Shown here: in pieces, positions 52,267-63,760 of the stretch
How the letters are laid out: each line of letters begins with the position of its first letter
How positions within the stretch are numbered: position 1 is the first letter of the stretch
Assembly: GCA_019359075.1 (NCBI GenBank)
Contig: JAHHIB010000002.1
Span: forward strand, 1-64,000
DNA length: 64,000 nt
Reading direction: 5' to 3'
From: Kalymmatonema hyalinum WJT4-NPBG1
Lineage (GTDB): Bacteria; Cyanobacteriota; Cyanobacteriia; Cyanobacteriales; Nostocaceae
The notes under the pieces: model-generated
What the model saw: the letters and a program-made list of their open reading frames with translations, nothing else
What the model was told of the DNA's origin: nothing
Databases searched by the model: none
Position numbers and translations under genes: made by a program

Positions 52267-53052
52267 TTGAAGATGACTAATAATATCAAAGAGCAAATTA
52301 AAAACGACCTGCAACAAGCAAAACAAACCGGACAACTCAGATCGGAACGTGTTCGAGAAATTGTAAAATCTGCACTTTCTCAGGTAGTTTCTGAGTTTAA
52401 AGAAGGTTCTACTGAACTTCGCACCCTTGTTAAAGATGCTGTCTCTACTGTCATTGAAAACTTACAAGAAAAAGGTAGTGACGTGAAAGAAGAAGTGACG
52501 GCATCCATTGAGGGAGCGTTGGAAGCAGTTAATAGTAAAAGACACGAATCTATTGCTAAAACTCAAGCTGAAGTTAAGCAACTACAAGCTAAATTAGATG
52601 AACAAGAAGAAAAAATTCAGCAAGAAGTTGAAGGAATTTTAACAGAAATTCAAGACACCAGTCAAGAAAAATCTGCTAGTGCAAAAACCGCTATTGATTC
52701 GGCTATCAATGGGATCAAAAATAGTGAAGAAGCAGAATTATTAAAGAAACGCTATGCTCAACTGCGAGCACAGCTAGCCATCGTACAAGCTAATTTGGCT
52801 GCACGTTATGGCGGACGTTCTGAGGAAGTTCAAGGATATTTAGACGAAGCTAAAAACTGGTTTAACCAAGCTCGTCCGCAAGCAGAAGTGGTAGTTGCAC
52901 AGGTACAAGAAAAAAGTACGCATATAGACCAAAAACTTGGCGAAGCAGGTACGGCGATCGCTAAAAAAGAGCGGCAAATCAAACAAATATTAAGGGAGTT
53001 ACTCCATGCAGCGGCTGACAGGTTAAAAGATAAAGAACCTGTTAAGAAATAG
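52267..53052 (+). CDS. Coiled-coil/amphipathic helical hypothetical protein
   Basis: Charged helical sequence throughout; strong terminators after it; no family named with certainty. Confidence 0.6.
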   Translation: MKMTNNIKEQIKNDLQQAKQTGQLRSERVREIVKSALSQVVSEFKEGSTELRTLVKDAVSTVIENLQEKGSDVKEEVTASIEGALEAVNSKRHESIAKTQAEVKQLQAKLDEQEEKIQQEVEGILTEIQDTSQEKSASAKTAIDSAINGIKNSEEAELLKKRYAQLRAQLAIVQANLAARYGGRSEEVQGYLDEAKNWFNQARPQAEVVVAQVQEKSTHIDQKLGEAGTAIAKKERQIKQILRELLHAAADRLKDKEPVKK

Positions 53053-57682: not shown

Positions 57683-58180
57683 TCAACGCTCGTACATTTG
57701 TTTATGCTGGGCTAAAAGCTGCAGATATTTCTCATTCGTCTTTGCTTGTGTCCACTTCTGTTTAAAAATTGCTGCTGATTCAGCTTTCACTGCATCTACT
57801 TCATTGGGTAAAATATCTTTTCTAGCTTGAATCTGGGCTTCTTGAGAGGATTCTTTTTGAGGATTGGTTTTGTACTTTCTACCACTTTTATGATTAGCAT
57901 AGCGGCGCGATCGCGTGTATCCCATTTGTAAAAACTTCCGCGCCATATCCGCACCAACAAAATCATCCTCTTCCAAATATGCCAAAAATATTTGGTAGAT
58001 TTTTTCGCTAGACTCTCTCGCAATATCTGGAGTTTTAAACCGCCAGTAAGGAAGAATTTCTGATTTGTACGGTTCTACCAAAAGTACTCCCTGTTCGCCC
58101 TTACCCACGCGATAGAGTTCAGGATGTTGTCGAAAATCTATATTCTGAAAATCCAAAGAATAATCAAACATAGATGACAT
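57683..58180 (-). CDS. DUF4385-like protein
   Basis: FDYSLDFQNIDFRQHPELYRVGKGEQGVLLVEPYKSEILPYWRFKTPDIA...GADMARKFLQMGYTRSRRYANHKSGRKY. Confidence 0.75.
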   Translation of the reverse strand: MSSMFDYSLDFQNIDFRQHPELYRVGKGEQGVLLVEPYKSEILPYWRFKTPDIARESSEKIYQIFLAYLEEDDFVGADMARKFLQMGYTRSRRYANHKSGRKYKTNPQKESSQEAQIQARKDILPNEVDAVKAESAAIFKQKWTQAKTNEKYLQLLAQHKQMYER

Positions 58181-60327
58181 TACAAGCAAGCACTACCACA
58201 TCTATAGACTTTTGCCCAAACTTTTGTTGATGACTGAGTGGTCGTGCGAGGTTTGATCAACTCTAGTTTAAGAATCTTTAGCTTTTCTTGAGGCTTAAGA
58301 ACAGCTAAAGCTTTTTGTTCTTGAGGACTAAAGTTAGGTGCTTGTGGTCTATTGTTCCTCAACGTCACACCTGGTTCAACATTTATAGTTACTATCGATC
58401 CTACAGATGGAACAATAGGTGAATCAGTAGATTGTGAATTTTTGATTACAGATTTTCCAACAAATTCTGAATCTGAAGCTTTGTTAATATTACCTATAAA
58501 AATCCAACCATTAGTTATTGTTTCCGCCTTTCTTTCTGGAGTTCTTTCTGGTCTTGAAGGTAGAGTCTGAGAAAACGCTGATGATTTTTTTATGACTAAC
58601 GAATTTCGTTTTTGACTCAATCCAAATGTGACACCAATCAAACTTAAAATAACTGAGCCTACAATAATTCCAGTGGCTTTTTGAATTTTTTCAGTCTGTC
58701 GTTGAATACTTGGTTGGCTAAGCTGTTGAGTTGTTTGTTGTTGACTGTGCTGAAATTCTTTTTCTTTCTGTTGAATATCTTTATACTCAATCTCTTTTAT
58801 GTCTGTTTCTTGAAAACTCTTAAGATCTTTTATGTCTATTTCTTGAAAACTATGAGGCTGTTGGAAATCATTTAAATTTTGCTCAACCTGTTCACTAATA
58901 TCAGGTTTAATATCAGCTTCATCTGATAACTTGCTATTTTCATGAAACTCCACCCCCAACTCATTGCTCAAAAAATCTTCTCTTCTGTGTATTGCTAGCA
59001 AAGGAGTGGGAGGAGGTGGTGCTATAAGAAGTACTGCAGGCGGCGTGGGCTCTTCGTATTGTGGGCAATTAGACGATATAAAATCATCACTAAGAGGATG
59101 CTGCTTGCTTGACCTCCGCAGATGATCCGTAAGCACCTGTTCGTCTATTTTGTTGTTGTGATTACCAGACACCTTAACTTCTTCATCTGTATCTTTGGCG
59201 GTTTCCTCCACACCAATTACAGATTGTTTGACCTGGTTAATTGTATCTTTTATAGTGTGCTTTCCAGCCTCAGGTGTGGCTTTTGTCGCGTCTTCTTCAC
59301 CTATGGGGGAGGAATTGTTCTGTTTAATTGTATCTTTTAATGTATCGCCTACACCGTTGACATTATTTACAACTTCAGCTAAAGTCTTTGCTGCACCGAC
59401 AACAGATGGCTTAACCTGCTCAACCGTATCTTTCAATATATCTACTACACCGACAATAGATGGCTTAAGCTCCTCATCTATATCTTTGGCGGTTTCCTCC
59501 ACATTAATTACAGATTGCCTGACCTGGTCAATTGTATCTTTTAATGCATTCAGAAGCTCGTTGATAGTGTGGTTTAGAGCCTCAGGTGTGGCTTTTGTCG
59601 CGTCCTCTTCACCTATAACGGAGGAATTGTTCTGTTGATTTGTATCTTTTAATATATCACTTACACCGTTGACAGAGTTGTTAACAGCCTCAGCTAAACT
59701 CTTTGCTGCATCGACAACAGATGGCTTGACCTGCTCAACCGTCTCTTTCAAAACATCTACCACACCGACGACAGAGGGCTTAACCTCCTCAACTGTACCT
59801 TTTGCGGCGTCCACTACACCGATTACAGAAGGCTTGACCTGAGCAATTGTATCTTTTAATGCATCTCCAACATTGGTTACACTGTTCACACTGTAGTTAA
59901 CACCTTCAGCTACACTTTTGGCTGCACTCACTACAGAGGGCTTGACCTCGTCAACTGTATTCTTTACTGCATCCACTACACCTACTACAGAGGGCTTGAC
60001 CTCGTCAATTGTATCTTTTAACGCATTACCTACATCGACTACAGAGTGGTTAACACCCTCAGCTACACTCCTAGCAGCGTCCACTACACTTTCTACAGTG
60101 CGGTTAACACGTTGAGCTGTCCCCTTACCAACCAAAGCGCCAGCTACTGCGCCCACTACAGTACCGGAAATTCCTCCAAGTTTGCGACCGAGTAAACCAC
60201 CAATCGCTGCTCCAACTAATCCACCACCTATGCCTGTACCTGCTCGATCAGTTCTACGTAGCTCCCTAATGCGCTCAGCCTTTTCGTCATGCTTATCAAT
60301 AGGCTGCTTGCTATTACCCATAGTCAT
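58180..60327 (-). CDS. Glycine-zipper / 18-residue-repeat protein A with TM and C-terminal extension
   Basis: GGGLVGAAIGGLLGRKLGGISGTVVGAVAGALVGKGTA, then tandem 18-mers (e.g. DTIDEVKPSVVGVVDAVK), a predicted TM (TGIIVGSVILSLIGVTFGL) and a C-terminal segment. Start chosen at 60327 with aaaggaga RBS. Confidence 0.75.
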   Translation of the reverse strand: MTMGNSKQPIDKHDEKAERIRELRRTDRAGTGIGGGLVGAAIGGLLGRKLGGISGTVVGAVAGALVGKGTAQRVNRTVESVVDAARSVAEGVNHSVVDVGNALKDTIDEVKPSVVGVVDAVKNTVDEVKPSVVSAAKSVAEGVNYSVNSVTNVGDALKDTIAQVKPSVIGVVDAAKGTVEEVKPSVVGVVDVLKETVEQVKPSVVDAAKSLAEAVNNSVNGVSDILKDTNQQNNSSVIGEEDATKATPEALNHTINELLNALKDTIDQVRQSVINVEETAKDIDEELKPSIVGVVDILKDTVEQVKPSVVGAAKTLAEVVNNVNGVGDTLKDTIKQNNSSPIGEEDATKATPEAGKHTIKDTINQVKQSVIGVEETAKDTDEEVKVSGNHNNKIDEQVLTDHLRRSSKQHPLSDDFISSNCPQYEEPTPPAVLLIAPPPPTPLLAIHRREDFLSNELGVEFHENSKLSDEADIKPDISEQVEQNLNDFQQPHSFQEIDIKDLKSFQETDIKEIEYKDIQQKEKEFQHSQQQTTQQLSQPSIQRQTEKIQKATGIIVGSVILSLIGVTFGLSQKRNSLVIKKSSAFSQTLPSRPERTPERKAETITNGWIFIGNINKASDSEFVGKSVIKNSQSTDSPIVPSVGSIVTINVEPGVTLRNNRPQAPNFSPQEQKALAVLKPQEKLKILKLELIKPRTTTQSSTKVWAKVYRCGSACL
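59165..60123 (-). repeat. Tandem 54-bp/18-aa repeats in protein A
   Basis: GTAQRVNRTVESVVDAAR / SVAEGVNHSVVDVGNALK / DTIDEVKPSVVGVVDAVK / ... DTIAQVKPSVIGVVDAAK / GTVEEVKPSVVGVVDVLK ... Confidence 0.85.
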
Positions 60328-60590
60328 TGTCTCCTTTATCCAAGACAGCATAACGCTTAACTGAAGCAGCTAGTTCTTTCTGACTAATTTATCAATCATT
60401 AGTAAGAGCTTAACCGACCTAAAGGGGTATATTGTCCTACATCATTGCTGCCAATTGATAGATACGAATTCAATTTTTGGTTGCAACATTGCACCCCGCA
60501 ACCCCTTTTATCAAGGGATCATATGTAGCAAACATTTATTTTGAAATGGTAAGAGCATCAACTAGTGCCTACAGACAGATAAAGTAAATC

Positions 60591-60710: not shown

Positions 60711-61322
60711 TCACTTCTGGTTTTCTACTGGGACTAACATATAAGACGTCTGCTCATTAGGTGTCTGGTCATTAGGTATGTTGACGTTCAGAGTACCAGA
60801 TGGCGTCTCATTCTCATCTGCGCTTGTGGCTACGTCCACTGTACCTTGGACAGTGTCGTTAACACCTTGTGCTGCACCCTTGACCATGTCCACTGTATTG
60901 TTTACCGTGTCGCTAACGCCTGCGGCTGTAGACTTGACAGCACCTACAGCATTGTTTACCGTGTCGGTCACGCCCGTTGCTGTGCCCTTGACGGTGTTTC
61001 CTACATCTTTTACGGTGTCGTTAACACCCTCAGCAACTGTATTTATTGCGTCGCCTACACCTTTTACAGTTTGGTTAAAATTCTCGGCTGTACCCTTGAC
61101 TACATTCCCTACTTTTTTTACAGTTTGGTTAACCCTTTCGGCTGTACCCTGAATAGCTAAAGCCCCAGCTATTGCGCCTAACGTAGCACCAATGAGTGTT
61201 CCAATCGCTATTTTAGATAACCCATTGTTCGCGCCTCTACCTACTTGATTAGCATCAGGTTGATCTGCAGCTAGCTCAATATTTCCTTGAGGTTGATCCA
61301 AAAGCTGTTGGTTCGCATCCAT
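60711..61322 (-). CDS. Glycine-zipper / 18-residue-repeat protein B
   Basis: IAIGTLIGATLGAIAGALAIQGTA glycine zipper then six exact-length 18-mers; start at 61322 with aaaggaaa RBS. Confidence 0.75.
   Translation of the reverse strand: MDANQQLLDQPQGNIELAADQPDANQVGRGANNGLSKIAIGTLIGATLGAIAGALAIQGTAERVNQTVKKVGNVVKGTAENFNQTVKGVGDAINTVAEGVNDTVKDVGNTVKGTATGVTDTVNNAVGAVKSTAAGVSDTVNNTVDMVKGAAQGVNDTVQGTVDVATSADENETPSGTLNVNIPNDQTPNEQTSYMLVPVENQK
60825..61148 (-). repeat. Six tandem 54-bp/18-aa units in protein B
   Basis: GTAERVNQTVKKVGNVVK / GTAENFNQTVKGVGDAIN / TVAEGVNDTVKDVGNTVK / GTATGVTDTVNNAVGAVK / STAAGVSDTVNNTVDMVK / GAAQGVNDTVQGTVDVAT. Confidence 0.92.
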
Positions 61323-61559: not shown

Positions 61560-63263
61560 TTATCTGTTGTAATCGGTAAACCGAGCAATTTCTTCCTCAA
61601 GCGGGTCTCTTTCATCAGCATCTACTGACCCAGCGTCTATAGACAGAGTTGAATCAACTACAGGCGTAACTGGATTGTCGTCAAGTCCGTCTATCGGGTC
61701 TGGTGCTGAAATGTAGACCACCGGCGTACGATCCATGTCTAGTTCATCATTGTTGTACTGGTTGCCAGCACTTGTCCACCCTTGATATTGATTGCCCTGA
61801 TTTCCAGATGACTGAACATTCTGTGCGGCACCTTGTACAGATTGGTTAAAATCCTCCGCTGTATTCTGTACTGCGTCCGCTGTACCTTGTGCGCCTTGGC
61901 TAGTTCCCTCAGCAGCTCTATTTGCTGTGTCCTTTGCTGCGTCGGCTGTACTTTGTGCGGCTTGGCTAACACCCTGTGCTGTATTCTGTACTGCGTCGGC
62001 TGTACTTTGTGCGGCTTGGCTAACACCCTGTGCTGTATTCTGTACTGCGTCTGCTGTACCTTGTGCTGCACCTTGTACAGCGCCCGCTACACCCTGCGCT
62101 GTACTCTGTACTGCGCCCGCTGCACCTTGTGCGGTTTGCTTAGTTACATCAGCGACAGTGTTGGCTGCACCTTGTACAGCGCCCGCTACACCCTGCGCTG
62201 TACTCTGTGCTACGTCTAATGCACCTTGTGCAGTTTGCTTAGCTACGTCAGTGACACCCTGCGCTGTATTCTGTACTGCGTCCACTGTACCCGCTACGAC
62301 TTGCTTGGTTACATCAGTGACACCCTGCGCTGTATTCTGTACTGCGTCCACTGTACCTGCTACGACTTGCTTGGTTACATCAGTGACACCCTGCGCTGTA
62401 CTCTGTGCTACGTCTAATGCACCTTGTGCGACTTGCTTGGCTCCTTCAGCGACACCCTTTGCCGTGTCCACTGTACCACCTACAACAGCTTGGCTAGCAC
62501 CGTCAGCGATACTCTTTACCGCTTGCCCTACACCTTTTCCTGTTTGGCTAAGACCGCCACCTATAGTTTTTGCGGCTTCTCCTACACCTTTTGCAGCAAC
62601 GTTAAAGCCCTGAGCTAATTTTTTACCAGCCAAAGCGGCGGCTAATGAACCCAACGTACCACCAATGAGTCCGCCTATTAGCGCTCTAGTGACTAGAGGA
62701 TTGATGCCTCCTTTTCCTGATAGAGCACCAGATACAGCACCAGCTAGACCGCGGCCAGAAGAAGCATTTGCGTCTCCAGATGCCCCAGCACCCACGTTCG
62801 CGCCTGCTGAACCTGCACCAGGTTGACCCCCAGAAGAAGCATTTGCGTCTCCAGATGCCCCAGCACCCACGTTCGCGCCTGCTGAACCTGCACCAGGTTG
62901 ACCTGTGCTGATACTGCTTCCAGACACCCCTGCACCTGTGGTTGTGCCTGCTGAACCTGCATAAGGTTGACCTGTGCTGATACTGCTTCCAGACACCCCT
63001 GCACCTGTGGTTGTGCCTACTGAACCTGCATAAGGTTGACCTGTGCTCATGCGGTTAGTATCAACGCTTCCAGATGCATCAGCACCGATGTTTGCGCCTG
63101 CTGAACCTGCACCAGGTTGACCGATTATAATGCGGCTGCCATCTTCGCTTCTCAACACCCCTGCATCTGTGCTTGTGGCTGCTGAACCTGCATAAGGTTG
63201 ATCTGTGGTTATGCTGTTAGCGTTTATACTCTGCCTATCTGAACCCTGCCTGCTTTCAACCAT
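61560..63263 (-). CDS. Glycine-zipper / 11- and 18-residue-repeat protein C
   Basis: N-term GQPYAGSAGTTTGAG repeats, ALIGGLIGGTLGSLAAALAGKKLA zipper, then 11-mers (GVTDVTKQVVA/GTVDAVQNTAQ) and 18-mers; aaggagac RBS. Confidence 0.75.
   Translation of the reverse strand: MVESRQGSDRQSINANSITTDQPYAGSAATSTDAGVLRSEDGSRIIIGQPGAGSAGANIGADASGSVDTNRMSTGQPYAGSVGTTTGAGVSGSSISTGQPYAGSAGTTTGAGVSGSSISTGQPGAGSAGANVGAGASGDANASSGGQPGAGSAGANVGAGASGDANASSGRGLAGAVSGALSGKGGINPLVTRALIGGLIGGTLGSLAAALAGKKLAQGFNVAAKGVGEAAKTIGGGLSQTGKGVGQAVKSIADGASQAVVGGTVDTAKGVAEGAKQVAQGALDVAQSTAQGVTDVTKQVVAGTVDAVQNTAQGVTDVTKQVVAGTVDAVQNTAQGVTDVAKQTAQGALDVAQSTAQGVAGAVQGAANTVADVTKQTAQGAAGAVQSTAQGVAGAVQGAAQGTADAVQNTAQGVSQAAQSTADAVQNTAQGVSQAAQSTADAAKDTANRAAEGTSQGAQGTADAVQNTAEDFNQSVQGAAQNVQSSGNQGNQYQGWTSAGNQYNNDELDMDRTPVVYISAPDPIDGLDDNPVTPVVDSTLSIDAGSVDADERDPLEEEIARFTDYNR
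61850..62600 (-). repeat. Tandem 33-bp/11-aa and 54-bp/18-aa repeats in protein C
   Basis: GVTDVTKQVVA GTVDAVQNTAQ GVTDVTKQVVA GTVDAVQNTAQ GVTDVAKQTAQ GALDVAQSTAQ GVAGAVQGAAN TVADVTKQTAQ GAAGAVQSTAQ GVAGAVQGAAQ GTADAVQNTAQ; then DAVQNTAQGVSQAAQSTA x2. Confidence 0.9.
62755..63220 (-). repeat. Tandem 75-bp and 69-bp repeats encoding 25-aa / 23-aa GQP(G/Y)AGSAG units
   Basis: SGGQPGAGSAGANVGAGASGDANAS x2 and STGQPYAGSAGTTTGAGVSGSSI x2. Confidence 0.85.
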
Positions 63264-63760
63264 GCCAATCGTCTCCTTAAATCAAAAAGGTTTGACGCTT
63301 ATTTGATATAAATTGTTTTCACTCGCCAATTTAACGATTAAAAACAATAAATTAACCGCTCTAAGGATATACATATTAAATTGCAGAGTCTGTCTCAAGT
63401 TATAATTATAAGGCGTATATAAATATGCGTATTTACCGTGTCTATTTGATTTGGTAATATACCTAAATTAACTGTATTGTAAGTTTGTTTAAAATTTATT
63501 TTTGCAGTTATTATTTTGTACTTTACTCTTGGTATATTTTTAAATTAAGTATTGCTTTTGTCCTTTTAAATTAATATATAACCTAAGGAAAAATATTAGG
63601 AATAAGTAAAAAACTAGGAAAAAAGCAAATGAACTATTTTTTTAAGCAATATAAATAATAAGCTTTACTATCTAACTAAAATTGCCTTTAACTCTTGAGA
63701 AAGTGTGCTATTAGCTTCTTGCTGATTTTCTATTAAATTCAATATCTAATAATTAGAAAT

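What the first reader, a model, noticed from the sequence alone, without database searches (positions are those of the whole stretch)
60825..61148. Six perfectly length-conserved 18-residue repeats in protein B
All six units are exactly 18 aa with no indels (GTAERVNQTVKKVGNVVK ... GAAQGVNDTVQGTVDVAT) although the sequences diverge. Constant length despite divergence implies selection on periodicity (5 helical turns per repeat) rather than recent duplication only.
Basis: partly seen in the sequence, partly recalled or inferred. Interest (0 to 1): 0.6.

Follow-up and report, generated by a model that had tools for sequence, protein, structure and literature searches.

The report
Phase-locked amphipathic helix in cyanobacterial protein
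A small membrane-anchored cyanobacterial protein carries six 18-residue repeats that would form one straight 16-nanometre helix with a water-repelling stripe down one side, and 38 related proteins have kept that helix in step while their sequences drifted, so the helix geometry rather than the exact sequence is what selection preserves; it probably lies on membranes as perilipin and synuclein do.

Summary
Protein B (window 60711-61322, minus strand, 203 aa) has six 18-residue units with no indels at exactly 60825-61148 (lag-18 identity 0.53; shuffles 0.12, maximum 0.27). Hydrophobic moment peaks at 100 degrees in all 13 orthologs first tested. Over 34 orthologs, an alignment-free phase coherence has median 0.98. 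In 38 orthologs, units 1-5 show one indel (exactly 11 aa), against 37 distinct indels in fewer flanking residues. Same-position units match best between species, so the array is old. Sequence drifts fast (dN/dS about 0.5, against about 0.05-0.3 for most pairs of neighbouring genes). What is kept is phase rather than literal length: the clean exceptions are an 11-aa deletion and 7-aa losses in the last unit, and 11+7=18. B has a glycine-zipper membrane helix before the repeats and a conserved C-terminal YILVPV motif. It always lies just downstream of a homologous gene, C, with 11-residue periodicity. No Pfam or NCBIfam model reaches its cut-off. Best explanation: a membrane-anchored, perilipin/synuclein-like amphipathic helix lying on a lipid surface, acting with C. 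The main rival is an unsupercoiled coiled coil. No lipid binding or phenotype has been shown.

The parts
60711..61322 (-). protein B CDS, 203 aa: acidic polar N-terminus, glycine-zipper transmembrane helix, six 18-aa repeats, polar tail with conserved C-terminal motif
60825..61148 (-). six 18-residue repeats (residues 59-166); predicted single helix 61-170; hydrophobic stripe at positions 3, 6, 10, 13, 17 (3-4-3-4-4 spacing)
61152..61211 (-). glycine-zipper membrane helix IAIGTLIGATLGAIAGALAI (G41, G45, G49 and A50, A52, L55 invariant or nearly so); no indel in 38 orthologs
60714..60749 (-). conserved C-terminal motif TSYMLVPVENQK (consensus QTxYILVPVxxQ)
61560..63263 (-). paralog C (567 aa), upstream partner: glycine zipper plus 11-aa (22/33/55) amphipathic repeats; homologous to B; next to B in all testable genomes
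61809..62597 (-). hendecad repeat region of C, moment peak 98.25 degrees (3.66 residues per turn)
58180..60351 (-). paralog A (723 aa; orthologs start at codon 11): two-pass glycine zipper, 18-aa repeats, C-terminal membrane helix and unannotated domain
59170..60123 (-). repeat region of A, dominant lags 18/36/54, moment peak 99.75 degrees
63330..63400 (-). conserved cis-element upstream of C: AGACAGACT...TATGTMTGYCTTTAGAGCGGTTAA-N12-AATCGTTAAA

Best explanation
Protein B is a membrane-anchored amphipathic-helix repeat protein. A glycine-zipper transmembrane helix holds it in a membrane (inferred: thylakoid or plasma membrane, repeats on the positively flanked cytoplasmic side). The six 18-residue units then form one uninterrupted helix of about 108 residues, roughly 16 nm. 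Because 18 residues are exactly five turns, its Val/Ala stripe stays straight. The helix has no bulky or aromatic residues to speak of and a poor intrinsic helix propensity, so it probably folds only on an interface, lying along the membrane surface like perilipin 4 or alpha-synuclein and binding by many weak contacts. It works together with paralog C, whose repeats use the hendecad (3-11) periodicity, as a two-protein coat or stabiliser of membrane surface, probably in stress conditions. Shown by computation: geometry, conservation of phase, predicted anchor, obligate C-B pairing. Inferred: lipid as the partner of the stripe, the membrane concerned, topology, stress role.
For: Moment at 100 degrees and its conservation. 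Indel desert in the repeats, about 45-fold lower rate than the flanks for units 1-5 and 11-fold for units 1-6. One AF2 helix, residues 61-170, pLDDT about 83-91 in units 3-6. Conserved glycine zipper. Hydrophobic fraction 0.36, aromatic 0.009, charged 0.19, mean moment about 0.42, against the table in PMC5889406: Plin4 0.35/0.002/0.15/0.257; Plin3 0.37/0.01/0.23/0.35; alpha-synuclein 0.47/0.02/0.24/0.30; apoA-I moment 0.39. Plin4's 29 33-mers likewise lack any indel (same paper). Weak sub-threshold resemblances point mostly to lipid-binding helices: ApoLp-III (11 of 14 members), YtxH, Apolipoprotein, alpha-synuclein E = 0.05. C directly upstream of B, same strand, in 29 of 30 loci, the exception lying at a locus edge, and in the first 13 genomes although flanking genes differ. 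B and C are homologous (HHalign 99.7%).
Against: No lipid-binding data. Valine-rich stripes also occur in coiled coils, and a designed heptad-hendecad coiled coil is a weak profile hit (CC-Hept-IV-hen2, E = 0.02). The unit number is fixed at six in B, whereas a simple surface coat should tolerate changes in copy number (A and C do vary). Net charge of the repeats is slightly negative (-2), not the positive charge usual for binding anionic membranes; reversing charge abolished Plin4 targeting. AF2 used an alignment of three sequences. No Pfam family reaches its cut-off for the window protein.
Confidence: 0.58

Rival explanations
1. Straight coiled-coil rod. The glycine zipper oligomerises B in the membrane and the 3-4-3-4-4 stripe (heptad + hendecad, 18/5) packs against the same stripe of other B (or C) chains as a nearly unsupercoiled bundle of fixed length, acting as a 16-nm spacer or scaffold.
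For: 3-4-3-4-4 spacing with Val/Ala in the stripe. Clean indels are exactly 7 and 11. The fixed number of six units suits a ruler. Weak profile hits to designed coiled coils CC-Hept-IV-hen2 and CC-Type2-VV. Glycine zippers oligomerise (general knowledge).
Against: No Leu in the repeats; about 13% Gly and high Thr/Asn/Val give a mean helix cost of 0.56 kcal/mol per residue, poor for a soluble coiled coil. B and C have different pitch (3.61 and 3.66 residues per turn), so their stripes would drift apart by well over 90 degrees across 108 residues. Position 13 alternates V and T.
Confidence: 0.24
2. LEA-like soluble desiccation protectant tethered to a membrane: disordered when wet, a membrane- or protein-shielding helix when dry. 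The amphipathicity serves drying rather than constitutive binding.
For: C has 11-aa repeats with motifs such as TAQGVTDVTKQ; low-aromatic, Gly/Thr/Ala-rich composition. B occurs in larger-genome members of the family (median 8.4 against 6.2 Mb, p = 3e-4, not corrected for phylogeny).
Against: LEA_4 is not hit by the three window proteins at E <= 1 or by nine C orthologs at E <= 0.01. No expression data. Charged fraction 0.19 is low for group 3 LEA proteins (own knowledge).
Confidence: 0.12
3. Neutral tandem-repeat by-product: constant unit length simply reflects unit-wise DNA slippage, without selection on phase.
For: Copy-number changes in A and C are mostly whole units (22, 55, 11, 18), as slippage gives.
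Against: B's units are diverged and positionally orthologous (same-position unit is best match 53% against 17% by chance), no 18-aa copy-number change occurs in 38 proteins, short indels are absent from units 1-5 although 37 occur in the flanks, and phase coherence is 0.98.
Confidence: 0.03

Closest known systems
Perilipin 4 / perilipin 11-mer (33-mer) amphipathic helix
   Same: Very long uninterrupted repeat helix, no indels between repeats, Val/Thr/Gly-rich, nearly no aromatic residues, low charge (PMC5889406)
   Different: Perilipin repeats are 11-mers read as a 3-11 helix (3.67 residues/turn); B is 18-mer, 3.61 residues/turn. B has a glycine-zipper membrane anchor, no 4-helix bundle, a higher moment, only 108 aa, and is bacterial. 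Perilipins were not detected by sequence.
Alpha-synuclein
   Same: Amphipathic repeat helix with a similar small-residue composition; phmmer alignment over residues 55-135 at E = 0.05 (not significant)
   Different: 11-mer repeats, no transmembrane anchor, higher moment in B (0.42 against 0.30)
Apolipophorin III / apolipoprotein A1/A4/E
   Same: Amphipathic helices; the most frequent sub-threshold Pfam match (11 of 14 B members, best E 2e-8)
   Different: Those are helix bundles or proline-punctuated 22-mers and are secreted (own knowledge); B is one unbroken, proline-free helix with a membrane anchor; the window protein scores 20.3 bits against a cut-off of 36.3
YtxH family (PF12732)
   Same: N-terminal glycine-rich membrane helix followed by a helical tail; 10 of 14 members match weakly
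   Different: 19.6-20.1 bits against cut-off 37.5 for the window protein; the model is 71 positions without regular 18-mers (the same genome has a separate, shorter glycine-rich protein that looks like YtxH, L006)
Group 3 LEA proteins
   Same: Paralog C has 11-aa periodicity with TAQ-type repeats
   Different: No LEA_4 match; B itself has 18-aa periodicity

Membership tests
Perilipin/synuclein-type 11-mer amphipathic helix | 11-residue periodicity (about 98 degrees per residue) | tested here: not met
   B peaks at 99.75-100 degrees, lag 18. C does meet it: 98.25 degrees, lags 11/22/33.
Perilipin/synuclein-type 11-mer amphipathic helix | long, indel-free amphipathic repeat helix without bulky residues | tested here: met
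   108 aa, aromatic 0.009, no Pro, moment 0.42
Perilipin/synuclein-type 11-mer amphipathic helix | folds on lipid, unfolded in water | not testable with these tools
   helix cost 0.56 kcal/mol per residue suggests it; needs CD with liposomes
YtxH (PF12732) | Pfam gathering score 37.5 bits | tested here: not met
   19.6-20.1 bits for the window protein
Apolipophorin III (PF07464) / Apolipoprotein (PF01442) | Pfam gathering scores 36.3 and 90 bits | tested here: not met
   20.3 and 14.9 bits for the window protein
LEA group 3 (LEA_4) | match to the LEA_4 model | tested here: not met
   no match for A, B or C at E <= 1 or for 9 C orthologs at E <= 0.01
LEA group 3 (LEA_4) | induction by drying | not testable with these tools
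   no expression data; literature searches found none
Coiled coil (18/5, heptad + hendecad) | 3-4-3-4-4 hydrophobic spacing | tested here: met
   positions 3, 6, 10, 13, 17
Coiled coil (18/5, heptad + hendecad) | oligomerisation through the stripe | not testable with these tools
   only monomer prediction available

The most novel reading that the evidence does not exclude
B and C form an undescribed two-component cyanobacterial membrane system in which a fixed-length 16-nm, exactly 5-turn (18-residue) anchored helix and a variable-length 3-11 (11-residue) anchored helix act together, the fixed six-unit helix setting a distance or patch size on the membrane: a bacterial counterpart of perilipin/synuclein coats with a built-in ruler.
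Probability: 0.2. Interest if true: 0.65.

Novelty: new variant of a known kind. Interest (0 to 1): 0.42.

Why it matters
Long amphipathic repeat helices (perilipins, synucleins, apolipoproteins, LEA proteins) are mostly studied in eukaryotes. Here is a conserved, unnamed bacterial family where selection on helical phase can be read directly: fast residue change, almost no indels, and length changes of exactly 7 and 11. Two homologous neighbours use the two pitches (18/5 and 11/3), which gives a natural comparison of what each pitch is for. A simple insertion experiment would test it.

Tried and rejected
Recent duplication or neutral slippage for B: rejected by ortholog data. Filing under YtxH, ApoLp-III, Apolipoprotein, DUF948, LEA: below curated cut-offs or absent. 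Regulon search with the cis-element upstream of C: one copy in the genome, at C itself, so no regulon clue. Plasmid relatives: none. Named relatives: only two found, Tolypothrix campylonemoides and Symplocastrum torsivum. Literature on such proteins in cyanobacteria: nothing found. AF2 of C: helical repeats but low confidence, pLDDT 42. dN/dS between units inside the window protein: too few sites and near saturation, uninformative; replaced by ortholog dN/dS. Structure search of the B model not run: a single long helix matches everything.

Full report
OBSERVATION. Protein B is encoded on the minus strand at 60711-61322 (ATG at 61322, 203 aa). Residues 59-166 are six units of exactly 18 aa and map to 60825-61148, as stated. 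Lag-18 identity is 0.53; 20,000 composition shuffles give 0.12 +/- 0.03, at most 0.27. At the DNA level Tandem Repeats Finder reports no array inside 60825-61148, so the repeat is a protein-level, diverged one, unlike those of the two neighbouring genes.

ORGANISM AND NEIGHBOURS. The genome is 8.4 Mb, completeness 95%. A genome of the same genus carries B at 98% identity on contig JXCB02000023.1, Tolypothrix campylonemoides VB511288, so this is a filamentous cyanobacterium. B sits between two paralogs on the same strand: C upstream (61560-63263) and A downstream (58180-60351). HHalign of the B and C ortholog profiles gives 99.7% probability, E = 6e-26, over the membrane helix and repeats.

ANATOMY. 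B has a polar acidic N-terminus, a glycine-zipper membrane helix (IAIGTLIGATLGAIAGALAI), the six repeats, and a polar tail ending in a conserved motif, QTxYILVPVxxQ. AlphaFold2 on three sequences gives two helices, 27-54 and 61-170; the second covers all six repeats without a break, with pLDDT about 83-91 in units 3-6. A confident lone helix from a shallow alignment is weak evidence and is treated as such.

AMPHIPATHICITY. With the Fauchere-Pliska scale the moment of the 108 residues at 100 degrees is 0.418, against 0.066 +/- 0.034 for shuffles; the peak lies at 99.5-100 degrees in all 13 orthologs first tested. Pooled over orthologs, V/I/L/M/F fills positions 6, 10 and 17 at 97, 91 and 85%, A fills 3 at 78%, V or T fills 13, and K sits at 11 and 18 beside the stripe. 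This is a 3-4-3-4-4 spacing (11 + 7 = 18 residues, five turns).

SELECTION ON PHASE. The ortholog set holds 38 distinct proteins after removing duplicates. Units 1-5 (90 residues) contain one gap event, of 11 residues, in one protein (Symplocastrum, L037); the flanks (73 residues) contain 37 distinct events of many sizes (binomial p about 3e-12; for units 1-6, five events, p about 2e-10). These p-values treat events as independent, which shared ancestry makes only approximate. The changes in unit 6 include clean 7-residue losses in L013 and L016; L087 is degenerate there. Both 11 and 7 keep the stripe. An alignment-free check starting from the membrane helix shows unit phases coherent at a median of 0.98 in 34 proteins, including the one with the 11-residue loss (0.99). 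Units of the same position match best between species (53% against 17% by chance), and cross-species same-position identity (0.40-0.62) exceeds most within-protein identities, so the array predates the divergence of these lineages. At the same time residues change fast: dN/dS of B is about 0.4-0.6, against about 0.05-0.3 for most pairs of the neighbouring genes outside the cluster. Sequence is loosely held, geometry strictly.

TWO PITCHES SIDE BY SIDE. B and A have dominant lags 18/36/54 and peak at 99.75 degrees (3.61 residues per turn); C has lags 11/22/33/44/55 and peaks at 98.25 degrees (3.66). Close-ortholog indels in the repeats of C and A are mostly close to whole turns (22, 55, 11; 7, 18, 25). 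For A and C that could also be plain slippage, and an aligner favours such gaps, so it is not used as proof.

C-B IS A UNIT. In the first 13 genomes C is the gene next to B even where the surrounding genes differ. In 30 loci of a wider survey (a few from the same genomes) C lies directly upstream on the same strand in 29; in the remaining one the locus ends 292 bases above the B frame. A accompanies them only in close relatives. B is patchy: 8 of 386 genomes drawn across the phylum at E <= 1e-30. Within the family B-bearing genomes are larger (median 8.4 against 6.2 Mb, p = 3e-4, uncorrected for phylogeny).

FUNCTION. B is most likely a membrane-anchored amphipathic helix that lies on a lipid surface. 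Its composition (hydrophobic 0.36, aromatic 0.009, charged 0.19) is close to Plin4 and Plin3 in the table of PMC5889406, which also notes that Plin4's 29 repeats have no insertions or deletions. Poor helix propensity (0.56 kcal/mol per residue) suggests folding only on an interface. What is inferred, not shown: that the stripe meets lipid, which membrane, the topology (from positive charges after the membrane helix), and any stress role. The chief rival is a straight coiled-coil rod; the fixed count of six units and weak hits to designed heptad-hendecad coils speak for it, the lack of Leu, the Gly/Thr content and the pitch mismatch with C against it.

MEMBERSHIP. No curated family takes the window protein at its threshold: YtxH 19.6-20.1 of 37.5 bits, ApoLp-III 20.3 of 36.3, Apolipoprotein 14.9 of 90, and no LEA_4 match. 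It works like a perilipin/synuclein helix by geometry and composition but fails the 11-residue criterion; it is therefore filed as a new variant of the amphipathic repeat helix, not as a member.

VERDICT. The refinement is that phase, not length, is conserved, and that the repeat belongs to a two-gene, membrane-anchored cassette with no name in the libraries searched.

Noticed in passing
window 63330-63400 (minus strand): Conserved element upstream of C in most of 13 genomes: AGACAGACT...TATGTMTGYCTTTAGAGCGGTTAA-N12-AATCGTTAAA, with an inverted AGACAGAC/GTCTGTCT pair. One copy in the own genome; most strong matches in relatives lie at their C gene.
   Followed up: partly
window 60711-61322 compared with L039, L040, L041: Divergence of B does not follow its neighbours: dS to G001 is 0.06 (Tex gene 0.26) but to G002 0.33 (Tex 0.14), suggesting exchange of B alleles between related strains.
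   Followed up: partly
window 58183-58698 (minus strand): C-terminal domain of paralog A (NGWIFIGNINK...VGSIVTINVEPGVTLRNN...KVWAKVYRC), after a second membrane helix, matches no Pfam family at E <= 1.
   Followed up: partly
window 61563-61750 (minus strand): C orthologs share their own tail motifs, YIS[AST]P[DE] and LEEEIAR, parallel to YILVPV in B.
   Followed up: no
window 60778-61152 and 61927-62613 (plus strand): Long antisense open frames over the repeats of B and C; probably explained by the rarity of Leu and Ser codons in the sense repeats, not evidence of genes.
   Followed up: no
window 62755-63047 (minus strand): N-terminus of C carries near-perfect 75-nt and 69-nt tandem repeats (GQPGAGSAGANVGAGASG type), a recent second repeat array in the same protein.
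   Followed up: no
window 52267-53052 (plus strand): Separate 261-aa helical protein with a weak apolipoprotein-like match (E = 4e-7, below cut-off), syntenic in the four nearest genomes.
   Followed up: no
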